Program-made: the position numbers and the translations under genes | Shown here: positions 41,524 through 48,607 of the stretch, in pieces | Numbering within the stretch: the stretch's first letter is position 1 | How the letters are laid out: each line of letters opens with the position of its first letter | IMG/VR virus record: IMGVR_UViG_3300033150_002805 | Location: 1-64,000 of that record | From: a virus | Length of the DNA stretch: 64,000 bases | Strand: one strand, 5' to 3' | Notes under the pieces: model-generated | What the model was told of the DNA's origin: nothing | The model's input: only the letters and a program-made list of their open reading frames with translations | Database searches by the model: none

Positions 41524-42036
41524 ATGAAGAGAGAAATTGACCTAACAACTTGGAAATGTGCTAATCCACCAAAAAAAGGAAAAGGTCAAGCATTTCCTTC
41601 AAGGTTTTTAAGAAATTTAGAAAGATTTTATCCTACAAAAAATAAGGAAGTTTTGTGGATGTTCGCTGGAAATATAAGACCAAGTGAGAGCAATGATACT
41701 AACGATATTCGTCCAAAAACCAAACCAACTTACTGTTGTGATTTTAGAGAAATTCCTGAAACTAAAAAATATGATGTTATTATTGCCGACCCACCATATA
41801 ATAAGTTATTTGCTAAAGAGTGGAAAAACGATTTGCCGAAACCGAAACATATTGTAGAAAAATCAGCTAAATTACTTAAAAAAAATGGATTATTACTTCT
41901 ACTTCATATAATTGTGATTCCTGCTTATGAAAAGCAAACTGGATTTGAAAGAATTGCTCTTCACCCTATTTTATGCGGAGCTGGTAATGCTATTAGGGTG
42001 TTAAATGTTTTTCAAAAAAAAAGATTGTTTAACTAA
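41524..42036 (+). CDS. DNA methyltransferase-like protein
   Basis: 170 residues. YDVIIADPPYNKLF contains a DPPY catalytic motif of adenine/cytosine-N4 DNA methyltransferases. The N-terminal LWMFAGNIRPSES part is the possible SAM-side strand. It is short, perhaps a minimal enzyme. It lies in the modification island. Confidence 0.6.
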   Translation: MKREIDLTTWKCANPPKKGKGQAFPSRFLRNLERFYPTKNKEVLWMFAGNIRPSESNDTNDIRPKTKPTYCCDFREIPETKKYDVIIADPPYNKLFAKEWKNDLPKPKHIVEKSAKLLKKNGLLLLLHIIVIPAYEKQTGFERIALHPILCGAGNAIRVLNVFQKKRLFN

Positions 42037-42044
42037 ATAAAACT

Positions 42045-42302
42045 ATGACTAAAAGAAAAGAGGAGAAAATCAAAGCGTGGGCAATAATAAGTCAGTCAAG
42101 AAAAAATCCCTGTATGATAGAAACTGCTTGGGATTTATTGGGAGAAGATAATGAATTTTATACCCCATTAGCAGTTTTTAGTAGTAGACAAGAGGCGAAA
42201 GAGTATCTAGATTACAGAAATGGAGGAAAGTCTATTTATCCTTGTTCACCAAGATTAAAAATAATTAGGGTAGAAATAATCTATAACCAACCAAAAAACT
42301 AA
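42045..42302 (+). CDS. Hypothetical small protein
   Basis: 85 residues (WAIISQSRKNPCMIETAWDLLG). No domain recognised. Between two methyltransferase genes; flanked by junction sequences. Confidence 0.4.
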   Translation: MTKRKEEKIKAWAIISQSRKNPCMIETAWDLLGEDNEFYTPLAVFSSRQEAKEYLDYRNGGKSIYPCSPRLKIIRVEIIYNQPKN

Positions 42303-42327
42303 ATAAACCTATGAAGAAAGAAAAAAT

Positions 42328-43017
42328 ATGAAACCGTATTACGAAAAAAATGGACAAACAATTTTTCATGGAGATTGTCTCAAAATAATGAAGCAGTTTT
42401 CCGATAAGAGTTTTGACCTCTGCCTTACCGACCCACCATATGGAATAAGTCAAAAAAGTGGTGGTTTTAGAGGCAAGGAGTTAGATTTTGGAAAATGGGA
42501 TAAGTTTACAAAAAAACAATTAAAAAATTTATTAAGACAGATTATTAGAGTAATCAGAGGAACTATTTTTATGTTCTGTAGTGCAGAGCAATTATCGTTT
42601 TTATTAACAGAATTGAAGAAAAAAGATTTTTTAACTAGACAGCTCATATGGTATAAACCTACTGCTTTTTCAATGAATGCTGACAAAATGTATATGTGGG
42701 CAACTGAAAATATTATTTGGGCAAAAAAGAGGAAAGCAAAATTTAATCCACGACTTAAAAGAAATTTATTTGTTTGTAATTCGGAATCAAATCAAAGATG
42801 GCATAAGACTCAAAAACCCATTAAACTGATTAAAGAATTTATTTTAGATGCCACTGATGAAAACGATACTATCCTTGACCCCTTCATGGGAAGTGGTACA
42901 ACTCTTGTCGCTGCCAGACAACTTGGCAGGAAAGCGGTGGGAATAGAAATCAATCAAAAATATTGTGAGATAGCTAAACAAAGGTTGAGACAAGAAACTC
43001 TTAATTTAAAATCATAA
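42328..43017 (+). CDS. DNA N6-adenine/N4-cytosine methyltransferase (beta class)
   Basis: 229 residues. FDLCLTDPPYGI (catalytic DPPY) comes first, then C-terminal DPFMGSGTT and GIEINQKYCEIA (SAM motif I), the motif order of beta-class DNA methyltransferases. It is a typical size. The real ATG at 42328 overlaps the stop of a six-codon mini-ORF at the junction. Probably protects phage DNA from restriction. Confidence 0.85.
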   Translation: MKPYYEKNGQTIFHGDCLKIMKQFSDKSFDLCLTDPPYGISQKSGGFRGKELDFGKWDKFTKKQLKNLLRQIIRVIRGTIFMFCSAEQLSFLLTELKKKDFLTRQLIWYKPTAFSMNADKMYMWATENIIWAKKRKAKFNPRLKRNLFVCNSESNQRWHKTQKPIKLIKEFILDATDENDTILDPFMGSGTTLVAARQLGRKAVGIEINQKYCEIAKQRLRQETLNLKS

Positions 43018-43021
43018 AATT

Positions 43022-43492
43022 ATGAAAAAAGAGAAAAAGAAAAAAATTATAGATAGATTTTATAAAAAATACAACAAAGAAAGAAGAGCCAAAGATGGAT
43101 ATTGGTTAATTCCTCCCGAGATTTACGAACCCCTAAAAAAAGAATTTAATTTCGATTTCGATCCTTGTCCAAATCCAAGACCAAAAAATTTTAATGGGTT
43201 AAAAGTAGAATGGGGTAAATCAAATTGGGTTAACCCCCCCCCATTCTGGGCAGGAATTACGGCTTGGGTTAGAAAAGCTATAGAGGAACAGAAAAAAGGT
43301 AAAACTTCTGTTTTAATTTTGCCACTCGATAATTGGGTTAATTTATTGTTCCAAGCGAAAGCACAAATAAGACCGCTAGGATTTCACGAGTGGGTGCATA
43401 CCAAAGATAAATCAAGAAGAAAAGCACCAAGACCATCATTTTTATTTATTTTAAAACCTGAATCAAAAAAATCGAAAGATTTAAAACAATAA
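43022..43492 (+). CDS. Phage Dam-like (PF05869-type) N6-adenine methyltransferase
   Basis: 156 residues. FDFDPCPNPRPKN, WGKSNWVNPPPFW and VLILPLDNWVN match the phage DNA N-6-adenine-methyltransferase family, which uses an NPP motif. It starts four bases after the previous gene ends. Complements the two enzymes upstream. Confidence 0.7.
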   Translation: MKKEKKKKIIDRFYKKYNKERRAKDGYWLIPPEIYEPLKKEFNFDFDPCPNPRPKNFNGLKVEWGKSNWVNPPPFWAGITAWVRKAIEEQKKGKTSVLILPLDNWVNLLFQAKAQIRPLGFHEWVHTKDKSRRKAPRPSFLFILKPESKKSKDLKQ

Positions 43493-44066: not shown

Positions 44067-44100
44067 ATTGTGAGGAAGTGATAACTCACTTCCTCACAAT
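44067..44100 (+). other. 15-bp perfect hairpin upstream of the broken methyltransferase
   Basis: ATTGTGAGGAAGTGA 44067-44081 is exactly complementary to TCACTTCCTCACAAT 44086-44100 around a TAAC loop. The methyltransferase ATG is eight bases downstream and no T-run follows. It may be an operator or a leader hairpin. Confidence 0.6.
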
Positions 44101-44108
44101 CTTAATAT

Positions 44109-44414
44109 ATGAAACCACCATTAAGCAAAAGGTACTCTGATGATTTTCAAACTCCACCAGAGGCTCTTAGACCACTCATCCCGTTTTTGAAAAAGGGTTG
44201 GATAATTTGGGAATGTGCAGAAGGCAAAGGCAATTTATCTCAATCTTTGTGGAGAAAGGGATTTGAGGTAATAGGCTCTGATGTGATTGGAGACAAATTT
44301 GAGAGAACAAAATTGATTGTGGAACCAATGAAAAATGGTTATCAACAATGGAGAGGAGCTGATTTTTTAAAATGGAAGCCCGAAATTTTTAATTGTATAA
44401 TTACAAAGATTTAA
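44109..44414 (+). pseudogene. 5-prime fragment of a SAM methyltransferase
   Basis: 101 residues (SDDFQTPPEALRPLIPFLKKGWIIWECAEGKG, ..GADFLKWKPEIFNCIITK). The family would continue with NPPY and about 35 more residues, but the frame stops after IITKI. The remaining C-terminal part is found after the TnpB element (45801-45983), so this is the upstream half of a disrupted gene. Confidence 0.65.
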
Positions 44415-44503
44415 CCGAGAAAGCTCCCGAATTTATTCGTAGAGATGAATCGGAAAGTTCTTTAAGGGTTTGACACATATTGTTGATAGAGCGATAATGA
44501 ATG

Positions 44504-44556
44504 TAGCGGTTAGGTCATTTTTTATGCCCGCCAAGACCTAACCGTTAAGGCGGGCA
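44504..44556 (+). other. H-type pseudoknot or overlapping palindromes at the element left end
   Basis: CGGTTAGGTC 44507-44516 pairs with GACCTAACCG 44535-44544 (10 bp, extendable to 13 with one G-U). TGCCCGCC 44525-44532, inside its loop, pairs with GGCGGGCA 44549-44556, outside the first stem. This is a classical pseudoknot geometry. It may be the element left end or a remnant of something else. Confidence 0.55.
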
Positions 44557-44667
44557 CTTAATTATAAGACCATGCCAAAAGGAGTTTATAAACATAAAAG
44601 AAAATCGAAATTAGATTTAATTAAAAAGGGGAGAATAAGCGAATGGAATACCATTTGGTAAAAAAAT

Positions 44668-45780
44668 ATGAAAAAAACATTTCAGTATAGAATTAAACCA
44701 AATCTTCAAACTTATCAAAAAGCAGAAAAATGGCTTTCTCTTTGTCGTCAACTATACAATAATTGTCTTAATGAAAGGATAATTGCTTATCAAGAAAACA
44801 AGAAATCAATCTCTCAATATAATCAGATGAAAAGACTTCCTCAATTGAAGAAAGTATTTCCAGAGTATAAACAAGTCAATTCTCAAACCCTTCAAGATGT
44901 GATACAGAGATTAGATAAAGCTTTTCAGGGATTTTTCAGAAGAGTTAAATCTAAAAATGGTAAGGCAGGATTTCCAAGGTTCAAAGGGCAAAATAGATAT
45001 GATTCATTCACTCTTAAACAAACAGGATGGAAACTTCAGAATCAAAATAACTATTTGGAAATAAAGAACATTGGCAAATTTAAGATTTTTCTCTCCAGAC
45101 CAATTGAAGGCGATGTTAAAACAATAACTATCCGCAGAACTTCAACTAATAAATGGTTTGTCTCTTTTGCTTGCGAGAATGTTCCTCAAAAAATACTTCC
45201 CAAAACAGGAAAAGAAATTGGAATTGATATGGGTTGTCAGTCATTTCTGACCGATTCTAATGGCAATAAAATTAACAATCCAAGATTTTTCAAAAAATCT
45301 CAGGATATTCTTAAAATGAGACAGCAAAGACTTTCTCAAAAAGTTAAAGGCTCTAATCGTAGAAATAAAGCAAGATTATTGGTAGCTAAAATTCACGAGA
45401 AAATTTCTAATCAACGGAAGAATTTTCACTTCAAAATAGCAAATAAACTAATTAAAGAAAACGATAAAATCTATATTGAAAAGTTAAATTCTTTTAAATC
45501 TTTTAGAAGTCTAAATAAATCAATAAAAGATGTAGCTTGGTTTCAGTTCTTTAATATTCTTGCTTTCAAAGCGGAGGAGGCTGGGAAGCAAGTTATTAAG
45601 GTTCCAGCTAAAAATACATCTCAAGTCTGTTCCAAATGCGGAAAGATAGTAGAAAAAGATTTGTCTGTCCGTATTCATAAATGTCCTTTTTGTGGATTAG
45701 AAACAGACCGTGATTGGAATTCAGCTTTAAATATTCTTAGGCTCGGGCAGAGCCTTCGGTTAATCCCGAGAATCTCCTGA
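44668..45780 (+). CDS. tnpB: TnpB RNA-guided nuclease (IS200/IS605 OrfB)
   Basis: 370 residues, normal length. N-terminal YRIKPN..Y..A.KW, RuvC acid 1 in IGIDMG (about 187-192), RuvC acid 2 in YIEKLNS (near 280), zinc finger CSKC/CPFC near 325-345 and RuvC acid 3 in DRDWNSALN near 350. All three acids are present, so it may be active. Known TnpB proteins are guided by an RNA from the element's own 3-prime end. Confidence 0.85.
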   Translation: MKKTFQYRIKPNLQTYQKAEKWLSLCRQLYNNCLNERIIAYQENKKSISQYNQMKRLPQLKKVFPEYKQVNSQTLQDVIQRLDKAFQGFFRRVKSKNGKAGFPRFKGQNRYDSFTLKQTGWKLQNQNNYLEIKNIGKFKIFLSRPIEGDVKTITIRRTSTNKWFVSFACENVPQKILPKTGKEIGIDMGCQSFLTDSNGNKINNPRFFKKSQDILKMRQQRLSQKVKGSNRRNKARLLVAKIHEKISNQRKNFHFKIANKLIKENDKIYIEKLNSFKSFRSLNKSIKDVAWFQFFNILAFKAEEAGKQVIKVPAKNTSQVCSKCGKIVEKDLSVRIHKCPFCGLETDRDWNSALNILRLGQSLRLIPRIS

Positions 45781-45802
45781 CTTCAGTCAAGGAGAGTGTC
45801 AA
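45742..45802 (+). ncRNA. Probable omega-RNA 3-prime scaffold and element right end
   Basis: CTCGGG 45742-45747 with CCCGAG 45765-45770, then TCTCC/GGAGA and TGACT/AGTCA (45773-45795), form two hairpins overlapping the tnpB end. In known elements the guide is the sequence just after the right end, here beginning with AAAACTTTCG of the methyltransferase. Assignment is by analogy. Confidence 0.5.
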
Positions 45803-45983
45803 AACTTTCGAAACAAGAAAACGTCAAAAGTTATTTAAAAAAAATGGAATTGAAGTAATTTTATTCGATAAGAGAATAAATTTTGAAACTCCGAGTGGAA
45901 AAGGCTCGGGTAGCTGGTTCGCCTCAGCTTGGTTCACGAATTGGTTAAACATTGGTAGACAATTAACCTTTGTGAATCTGTGA
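45801..45983 (+). pseudogene. 3-prime fragment of the SAM methyltransferase
   Basis: The frame 45801-45983 reads KTFETRKRQKLFKKNGIEVI, LFDKRINFETPSGKGSGSWF and ASAWFTNWLNIGRQLTF, then TGA. This is the expected C-terminus of the phage methyltransferase whose N-terminus is at 44109-44414. The connecting region of about 35 residues with NPPY is missing. It has no own start. Confidence 0.65.
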
Positions 45984-46210: not shown

Positions 46211-47130
46211 ATGGAACTTATTTGTAAAGTTTGTGGAAAAAAATTTGAAAAAAAAGATATTACACAAAAACTTATAATAAGGAATGTTTTTCCGAGTGGA
46301 AAAAATTGACTACCCCAAAAGGAGATAAATCTCCTTTTTGGAAGGGTGAAATTAAGAAAAGGTGCTTAAATTGTGGAAAAATTTTCCATTCATTTCCTTT
46401 CTTAAAACAGAAGTATTGTTCTCATAAGTGTGCTAATTCAAAAAATAGAATATATCACCTTGATGAGAATTTTTTTCAAGAAATTCGAACTGAAAACCAA
46501 GCTTATTGGCTTGGATTTGTTCTTGCTGATGGTTGTATTGGAGCTAATAAATCTCTAGATATTACTCTTAAGATTCAAGATAGAAACCATCTTGAGAAGT
46601 TTCTTAGAGATATCAAAGCTAAAAATCCATTAAAAGATTCAACAACAAAAACAAAAATCAAAATCTTTTCAGTTAAATTGATTCGGAATTTAAAAAAATT
46701 CAATATGGTTTCTCCCAGACCTAAAAATGTCGGATTACCAAAAATTTCAAAAAAATTATTTCCACATTTAATTAGAGGAATTTTTGATGGTGATGGTTGT
46801 TTAATATTTAATAAGATAAATCGAAAAAATAAAAAATCGGAGTTTTATTATTCTAGTTTTTCTATTTCTAATTCTTCAAGAATTTTATTATCAGATATTC
46901 AAATTATTTTGATGAAAAATTGTCAATTGGAAAGAACTAAACTCATAAAGAGAAGTGGAGGTTATGAATTGATCTATGGTGGAAGATTACAAACTCGAAG
47001 AATAATGTCTTTCCTTTATAGTAATGCTCACATCTATTTGGAAAGGAAATTCAAGATTTTTGAAGATTTAATGAATTATTCACCAAAAATACGAAAAAGA
47101 GACTGGCATGGACGATTTACCAATTCTTAG
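46211..47130 (+). pseudogene. LAGLIDADG homing endonuclease broken by one base in a poly-A run
   Basis: The start MELICKVCGKKFEKK at 46211 is a zinc-finger opening. After a run of eight A near 46250 the frame changes; inserting one A would give RYYTKTYNKECFSEWKKLTTPKGDKSPFWKG and continue in the long frame. That frame has a second CLNCGKIF...KYCSHKC finger and two LAGLIDADG motifs (AYWLGFVLADGCI and LIRGIFDGDGCL). It ends over the last codons of the terminase gene. It is a pseudogene or a sequencing error; the TTG at 46306 is not a good start. Confidence 0.7.
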
Positions 47131-48607
47131 GAATGGGAGGCTGTTCCCCACCTCCTGGTAAGAATAACGATTTGCCTCCCGCTCTCACTTCTCTATCCTG
47201 TTTTCCTGAAGTTCCAAATTTTGAAAGACCGATTAGGGCAAGGGCTATACTATCGAAATCATCAGCATGACCCTCAGCACTCTCGATCTTTTGCAAATCA
47301 TCGGTCATAGAACAGATGCTATTAAGCATTTCCTCGTCATCGAATATCTGAATTTGTTTATTCAGAACAGCTTTTTCAAATTCGGTCGCCATTTGGATTC
47401 TCATTTTGGGGGTAAAAATAATGGGAATAAAATGAGTGGTTAACAATCCAGAATCTTGAGCACCCAAAAACTCTCCTCTTGTTGCGTCAAAATAAAGATA
47501 GCTGATCCCGAAATTTTTAATAGCTTCCTTACAATACTCGACTTGGCTAGGGTGAAAAGGATCGAAAGGCTTTGCAGTATAGTAGGGCCAAGATTTCATA
47601 ATTTTGTGGTGAATCATAATCGCTTTCTTATCTTTAATCTCAAACACAACAAAAGAACTGTTGTGTTTTTTTCGGCCGATATCTAATCCCGCAACAACTA
47701 AATTAGGAGTATCTAATCCTTGAGCCAAAGGAATGTTTCTTAGTTGAGGATTTACAACATCCTTTCTTAGTTGTTCTTTTTTGAAAAAGGAATCAGTGGA
47801 ATAATAAGGTTCACATTGGATTTCTGAGGCAAAGGCACGTTCGCCCATGACTTTTACTTTTGCTTTTAATTGTTCTAGGGTGTAAAACTCGGGCCAGGTT
47901 GGGACTTCATTGCCTTGACTATCTTTGGTAATTCCAGGATATTTTCTAAAATGGAATTTCTTTTGTAATTCAGGATCAAAATAAAAATCTGCTCTTGTTA
48001 ATGGACTTCCTACTATATGAATTTCACCTCCTGGCTTTACGGTTTCCAAAATTACACTTCTAAATATCTCACCAATCTTTAAGATGATAGTTGGATGAGT
48101 CTTCGAAGCTGGATCTGAAAGAACATCATCCAACAGAAGAATATCGCTCTTGGCTCCTCTCGTGAACGAAGTGATACCAACAGGCCTTATTCTAGTTATA
48201 TATCTTTTATCCCAGGTATAAGCAGCTATGTTTTCTGCAAGAGGTTTTAGGTTTATGAGTTCTTTGAAGTATGGATTTTTATCTATAAGAGTCTTGACTT
48301 GAGAAATATGCCAGCCTGCAAGAGTTTCGTTATAGGAAAACAGCCTGATATCCAAATCTTCATTAACTCCTCTAAACATAATATTATATAAAATCCAGGA
48401 ATAAAAGGATGATGATTTGAAGTGACTTCTGGCAGCAATCTTCATTGTCCTATCATATTTTTGTAAGTAATTACAACTTTCTTCAATATAGTCACCTCCG
48501 ATGAAATTAGTAAAACTTTTTGAAAATATTTTAGTTGTGAACAAAAAAAACGATTTCGAACAATCGCTTAAAAGCTGAACTTTTTCTTTGAGTTCTTGAT
48601 TACTCAT
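47117..48607 (-). CDS. terL: Terminase large subunit
   Basis: 496 residues. ARSHFKSSS near residue 60 is a degenerate Walker A, ILLLDDVLS near 157 the Walker B, and AGLDIG near 308 with GHADDFDSIALAL near 440 are nuclease-domain acid motifs. It packages DNA into the head through the portal. It is minus-strand, far from the head genes at 15-27 kb, with plus-strand genes on both sides. The last codons overlap the homing endonuclease gene end. Confidence 0.85.
   Translation of the reverse strand: MSNQELKEKVQLLSDCSKSFFLFTTKIFSKSFTNFIGGDYIEESCNYLQKYDRTMKIAARSHFKSSSFYSWILYNIMFRGVNEDLDIRLFSYNETLAGWHISQVKTLIDKNPYFKELINLKPLAENIAAYTWDKRYITRIRPVGITSFTRGAKSDILLLDDVLSDPASKTHPTIILKIGEIFRSVILETVKPGGEIHIVGSPLTRADFYFDPELQKKFHFRKYPGITKDSQGNEVPTWPEFYTLEQLKAKVKVMGERAFASEIQCEPYYSTDSFFKKEQLRKDVVNPQLRNIPLAQGLDTPNLVVAGLDIGRKKHNSSFVVFEIKDKKAIMIHHKIMKSWPYYTAKPFDPFHPSQVEYCKEAIKNFGISYLYFDATRGEFLGAQDSGLLTTHFIPIIFTPKMRIQMATEFEKAVLNKQIQIFDDEEMLNSICSMTDDLQKIESAEGHADDFDSIALALIGLSKFGTSGKQDREVRAGGKSLFLPGGGEQPPIPKNW

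What the first reader, a model, noticed from the sequence alone, without database searches (positions are those of the whole stretch)
44109..45983. TnpB-only element has split a DNA methyltransferase gene
The N-terminal part (44109-44414) ends at IITK where the family needs NPPY. The C-terminal part (45801-45983) starts at TRKRQKLFKKNGIEVI. A 370-residue TnpB with intact RuvC acids and a probable omega-RNA end lie between. The expected guide reads into the methyltransferase gene, so TnpB could cut an unbroken allele. About 35 residues are missing, so a deletion accompanied or followed the insertion.
Basis: partly seen in the sequence, partly recalled or inferred. Interest (0 to 1): 0.7.

Follow-up and report, generated by a model that had tools for sequence, protein, structure and literature searches.

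The report
Jumping TnpB element broke phage methyltransferase
In a phage genome, a small mobile element carrying the RNA-guided nuclease TnpB sits inside a DNA-methyltransferase gene that has also lost 28 residues including its catalytic motif; the element is of a well-known kind, and only the exact loss between two copies of its target motif is unusual.

Summary
Confirmed and refined. The window belongs to a 76.8-kb phage record. Both fragments match one family (PHROG 799, DNA methyltransferase), and 17 relatives carry the gene without the element. The interrupter is a 1,398-bp IS200/IS605-family element, 44405-45802, with the same end motifs as IS608: TTAC/AAAG on the left and GAAT/TCAA on the right. 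It encodes an intact-looking TnpB and a covarying omega-RNA 3' end; no tnpA was found in the record. Compared with relatives the methyltransferase lacks exactly 84 nt (28 codons, NPPF...LLPLT, with catalytic motif IV), in frame, not about 35 residues. The element still abuts a TTAC, but this TTAC belongs to the Ile-Thr codons 84 nt upstream of where the right flank resumes. The simplest history is insertion after a downstream TTAC, then a deletion between two TTAC(AAA) repeats. Even precise excision would not restore the enzyme. The expected guide does read into the methyltransferase gene, so cleavage of an unbroken allele is plausible, but that is standard TnpB behaviour and untested here. 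This is a new member of a known kind; the TTAC-to-TTAC loss is the only unusual detail.

The parts
44109..44404 (+). N-terminal part of the DNA methyltransferase gene (98 codons plus 'AC' of the next Thr codon), ending ...CIIT
   Evidence: phrog_799 hit; alignment with 17 intact relatives
44401..44404 (+). TTAC: left cleavage/target motif, also the expected TAM; coincides with the Ile-Thr codons ATT AC|A
   Evidence: TTAC lies 13-16 nt before AAAG in all eight aligned left ends; IS608 left cleavage site is TTAC (PMC5934647)
44405..45802 (+). Whole TnpB-only IS200/IS605-family element, 1398 bp
   Evidence: left end by HMM and alignment; right end by 21 relatives
44420..44444 (+). Left-end guide AAAG (44420-44423) and sub-terminal hairpin (44424-44444)
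   Evidence: HMM built without the window matches 44398-44452, E 3.8e-5; AAAG invariant
44470..44498 (+). Possible sigma-70 promoter TTGACA-17-GATAAT for tnpB
   Evidence: best promoter-like match of the region, 11 of 12; the number of such matches is near chance, but similar sites precede tnpB in L002 and L004 and in L126
44507..44556 (+). Two interleaved perfect inverted repeats (CGGTTAGGTC/GACCTAACCG and TGCCCGCC/GGCGGGCA) where tnpA would lie; role unknown
   Evidence: direct reading; no homologue found
44572..44661 (+). Short 29-codon ORF (MPKGVYKHKRKSKLDLIKKGRISEWNTIW), doubtful as a gene
   Evidence: direct reading; no Pfam match
44668..45780 (+). tnpB, 370 aa, with RuvC D187/E271/D349 and zinc-ribbon cysteines
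   Evidence: Pfam OrfB_IS605 and Cas12f1-like_TNB, NCBIfam guided_TnpB E 6e-90, alignment
45740..45802 (+). Right end and 3' part of the omega-RNA scaffold: GAAT guide 45770-45773, hairpin 45774-45794, TCAA end 45799-45802
   Evidence: 22 of 25 consensus pairs show compensatory change in 19 sequences; IS608 right-end motifs are GAAT and TCAA
45803..45983 (+). C-terminal part of the methyltransferase gene (..A ACT TTC GAA ACA..); its first ~16-20 nt are the expected TnpB guide
   Evidence: 80% identical C-terminus in L007; phrog_799

Best explanation
A 1,398-bp tnpB-only element of the IS200/IS605 family with IS608-type ends inserted into a phage DNA-methyltransferase gene after a TTAC, most likely the one formed by Leu-Thr codons (CTT AC|A ACT TTC). 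Afterwards, or in the same event, an in-frame deletion of exactly 84 nt joined an upstream TTAC (Ile-Thr codons) to the element's left end. This is explained most simply by slippage or end-joining between two short repeats, TTAC or TTACAAA (TTAC plus the first AAA of the element). The enzyme is presumably dead because catalytic motif IV (NPPF) is gone. TnpB presumably makes an omega-RNA ending in the element's right end plus about 16-20 nt of methyltransferase sequence. With that guide it would cut uninterrupted alleles, or the resealed site, carrying TTAC-AACTTTCGAAAC, favouring copies with the element. Shown: anatomy, ends, missing segment, intact catalytic residues. Inferred: order of events, expression, cleavage.
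For: Both fragments hit one methyltransferase family in the right order; 17 intact relatives all have 84 nt between the two breakpoints; the joined flanks stay in frame, 158 codons. Left end found by an HMM built only from other elements, with TTAC 13-16 nt before AAAG in 8 of 8 left ends. Right end identical in plan in 21 relatives, ending in the TCAA position, with covarying stems. IS608 has the same four motifs (PMC5934647). TnpB catalytic residues invariant. TTAC occurs at the right site in 4 and at the left site in 7 of 17 relatives.
Against: No relative of this very phage with an intact gene was found (terminase scan empty), so the ancestral TTAC at the right site and the third base of the Thr codon that makes the repeat 7 bp are inferred. 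No relative carries TTAC at both sites. Only some relatives in this tnpB clade show TTAC at the left end by simple pattern (6 of 19), and the left-end seeds were chosen by eye.
Confidence: 0.82

Rival explanations
1. The element inserted at the upstream TTAC (Ile-Thr codons), and a later deletion removed the 84 nt to its right, ending exactly at the element's right tip.
For: The TTAC now next to the element is the upstream one; it needs no second TTAC.
Against: The right tip (TCAA) is untrimmed, and the right flank begins exactly one base after the 'AC' of the Leu-Thr codons, the place where a TTAC occurs in 4 of 17 relatives. That coincidence is unexplained under this rival.
Confidence: 0.12
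2. Two copies of the element once sat at the two TTAC sites (in one or two phage genomes) and recombined, leaving one copy with the left flank of one site and the right flank of the other.
For: It gives exactly the observed junctions.
Against: It needs two insertions 84 nt apart in one gene; no second copy of the element exists in the record.
Confidence: 0.05
3. The two fragments are different genes that happen to flank a TnpB gene.
For: None beyond low identity of the N-terminal part (44%) and failure of Pfam to name either part.
Against: Same PHROG in consecutive order, same intact relative aligned to both, frame preserved over the join.
Confidence: 0.01

Closest known systems
IS608 (ISHp608), IS200/IS605 family
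   Same: Left cleavage TTAC with guide AAAG, right cleavage TCAA with guide GAAT, sub-terminal hairpins, insertion 3' of TTAC (PMC5934647).
   Different: No tnpA in the element or in the phage record; different tnpB; flanking 84-nt deletion.
TnpB omega-RNA systems (ISDra2 TnpB and relatives)
   Same: Same protein family (NCBIfam guided_TnpB), intact RuvC acids, omega-RNA scaffold overlapping the right end, guide taken from the right flank (PMC8612924 title and abstract; guide behaviour from general knowledge of the field).
   Different: Expected TAM TTAC, not TTGAT; activity untested.
TnpB-bearing elements in other phage and MAG contigs (L121/L122 70%, L041 69% identical TnpB)
   Same: Same right-end plan and, in L041, L043, L124 and L131, the same left-end plan; L041 appears to retain a short tnpA remnant.
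   Different: Not inserted in this methyltransferase.
PHROG 799 DNA methyltransferases (e.g. Thermus phages phiYS40 and TMA, about 25% identity)
   Same: The interrupted gene belongs here.
   Different: This copy lacks motif IV and is split.

Membership tests
IS200/IS605 family, IS608-type element | Left and right sub-terminal hairpins with cleavage sites TTAC and TCAA and guide tetranucleotides AAAG and GAAT | tested here: met
   motifs from PMC5934647
IS200/IS605 family, IS608-type element | Insertion 3' of TTAC, no target-site duplication | tested here: inconclusive
   TTAC abuts the left end and there is no duplication, but the original flank was altered by the 84-nt loss
IS200/IS605 family, IS608-type element | Encodes Y1 transposase TnpA (absent in tnpB-only derivatives) | tested here: not met
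   No Y1_Tnp match in the 76.8-kb record; hence filed as a tnpB-only derivative with IS608-type ends, to be mobilised only in trans, not as a complete IS
TnpB RNA-guided nuclease | RuvC D-E-D and zinc ribbon, TnpB family match | tested here: met
TnpB RNA-guided nuclease | Conserved structured omega-RNA at the right end | tested here: met
   22 of 25 pairs with compensatory change
TnpB RNA-guided nuclease | Cleavage of DNA next to the TAM directed by the right-flank guide | not testable with these tools
   needs biochemistry
PHROG 799 DNA methyltransferase (functional member) | Family profile match and catalytic motif IV NPP[FY] | tested here: not met
   Profile match met; motif IV missing, so it is a remnant of the family, presumably inactive
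Group I intron plus IS605 (IStron) | Self-splicing intron core around tnpB | tested here: not met
   No group I intron match in Rfam even at E up to 5

The most novel reading that the evidence does not exclude
The 84-nt loss was not a separate accident but part of transposition: the single-strand transposase, supplied in trans, cut the target at two TTAC sites and placed the element between them, deleting the DNA in between.
Probability: 0.06. Interest if true: 0.55.

Novelty: new member of a known kind. Interest (0 to 1): 0.22.

Why it matters
It is a cleanly delimited natural case of a tnpB-only element inside a phage gene, with ends that can be read to the base. Here excision cannot rescue the gene because the catalytic motif is lost, and TnpB would presumably act against phages that still carry the unbroken methyltransferase. 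The TTAC-to-TTAC loss raises a small testable question about whether the transposase or simple slippage caused it.

Tried and rejected
IStron/group I intron: no Rfam match. The TTTGAC at 44469-44474 as target motif and left end: rejected, because the left-end hairpin lies upstream at 44420-44444 and TTGACA reads better as the tnpB promoter -35 box. The roughly 70 nt after IIT as foreign DNA: rejected, it is the element's left end. Search for a sibling phage by terminase and by the N-terminal fragment: nothing. Search for the interleaved repeats 44507-44556 in viral contigs, phages and plasmids: nothing convincing. A first genome scan with the single TnpB found nothing; the alignment-based scan worked. 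The joined-flank check of other elements for disrupted genes gave no open frames.

Full report
Setting. The window is part of a 76,846-base virus record. Around the finding lie other methyltransferase-like genes (41524-42036, 42328-43017, 43022-43492), a LAGLIDADG-type ORF (46306-47130) and a reverse-strand ORF (47117-48607) that I take to be the large terminase (own reading, not tested).

One gene in two parts. The fragment at 44109 and the fragment ending at 45983 both match phrog_799, DNA methyltransferase, in consecutive profile positions (208-289, then 321-362). A search with the C-terminal part gave 17 viral contigs whose genes run through without interruption. One of them, L007, aligns to both fragments. 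These genes read ...CIIT-NPPFSLKQKFLERCYKLGKPFALLLPL-TTFET.... In the window IIT is followed by the element, and the gene resumes as (T)TFETRKRQ. The distance between the two breakpoints is exactly 84 nt in every one of the 17 relatives. Joining the flanks keeps the frame, giving 158 codons with IIT directly followed by TFE. The loss is 28 residues, including catalytic motif IV (NPPF), so precise excision would not restore activity.

The element. The TnpB (44668-45780) matches OrfB_IS605, the Cas12f1-like TNB domain and NCBIfam guided_TnpB. It keeps D187, E271, D349 and four zinc-ribbon cysteines, all invariant among nine aligned relatives. An alignment search found relatives with up to 70% identity in viral contigs and 69% in a MAG. 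In 21 of these the right end reads GAGAATC-hairpin-(A)GTGTCAA or a close variant, as in the window. The 3' omega-RNA region folds to a consensus in which 22 of 25 pairs show compensatory change. The element therefore ends at 45802, and the guide begins AACTTTCGAAACAAG, inside the methyltransferase gene.

The left end. After IIT the window holds about 70 nt that match no methyltransferase relative. Left ends of related elements in L131, L124, L043 and L041 read TTAC-(13-16 nt)-AAAG-hairpin. A profile built from these four alone matched the window at 44398-44452 (E 3.8e-5), far above its next match there (E 0.25). In an alignment of eight left ends AAAG is invariant and TTAC stands 13-16 nt before it in all. 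So the left end starts at 44405, directly after TTAC 44401-44404. IS608 is described as having left cleavage TTAC with guide AAAG and right cleavage TCAA with guide GAAT (PMC5934647); the window has all four at the corresponding places. The TTGACA at 44470 is then most simply the tnpB promoter (11 of 12 consensus positions; a consensus match only).

History. The TTAC beside the left end is the one in the Ile-Thr codons. The right flank starts one base after the 'AC' of the Leu-Thr codons 84 nt further on, a place where 4 of 17 relatives have TTAC. The economical reading is insertion at that downstream TTAC, followed by loss of the interval between two TTAC motifs. If the lost Thr codon was ACA, as in 9 of 17 relatives, the repeats would be TTACAAA, 7 bp, because the element itself begins AAA. 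Slippage or end joining would give this. Insertion at the upstream TTAC with a later right-side deletion, or recombination between two copies, are less economical. A transposase-made loss between two TTACs is not excluded but has no precedent known to me.

What it does now. The record holds no Y1 transposase, so the element can move only with TnpA in trans. TnpB with this guide should recognise TTAC-AACTTTCGAAAC in unbroken alleles and spare its own copy, where TCAA replaces TTAC. That TnpB acts as a gene drive for its insertion sequence against element-free copies has been reported in plasmids (PMC11870625). Applied here it is inference.

Judgement. The finding is real and well anatomised, but of a known kind. 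The specific correction (28 in-frame residues, 44405-45802 boundaries, TTAC-to-TTAC loss) is the added value.

Noticed in passing
44507-44556: Two perfect interleaved inverted repeats (10 and 8 bp), G+C-rich in an A+T-rich phage, sit between the possible tnpB promoter and tnpB where tnpA would be; they could form alternative hairpins. No homologue found.
   Followed up: partly
44572-44661: A 29-codon ORF starting MPKGVYKHKRKS, reminiscent (from memory) of short motifs in phage endonucleases; no family match.
   Followed up: partly
41524-43492: Three further methyltransferase-like genes (MTase-like, N6_N4 type, phage Dam type) upstream of the broken one.
   Followed up: no
46306-47130: LAGLIDADG-type ORF with a zinc-finger-like N-terminus, beside the putative terminase gene; possibly a free-standing homing endonuclease.
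   Followed up: no
44067-44100: 15-bp inverted repeat directly before the methyltransferase start, terminator-like on the minus strand.
   Followed up: no
L131:1385-1500 and L041:1298-1500: In L131 the left end is fused to a short tail of tnpA just before tnpB; L041 appears to keep the first codons of tnpA: apparently separate losses of tnpA in this tnpB clade.
   Followed up: partly
L002 and L003 (IMGVR_UViG_3300005573_000004): Two nearly identical TnpB copies in one 150-kb phage contig, one within a region of repeated units with GTTTTGACCTATCAAA-like motifs.
   Followed up: no
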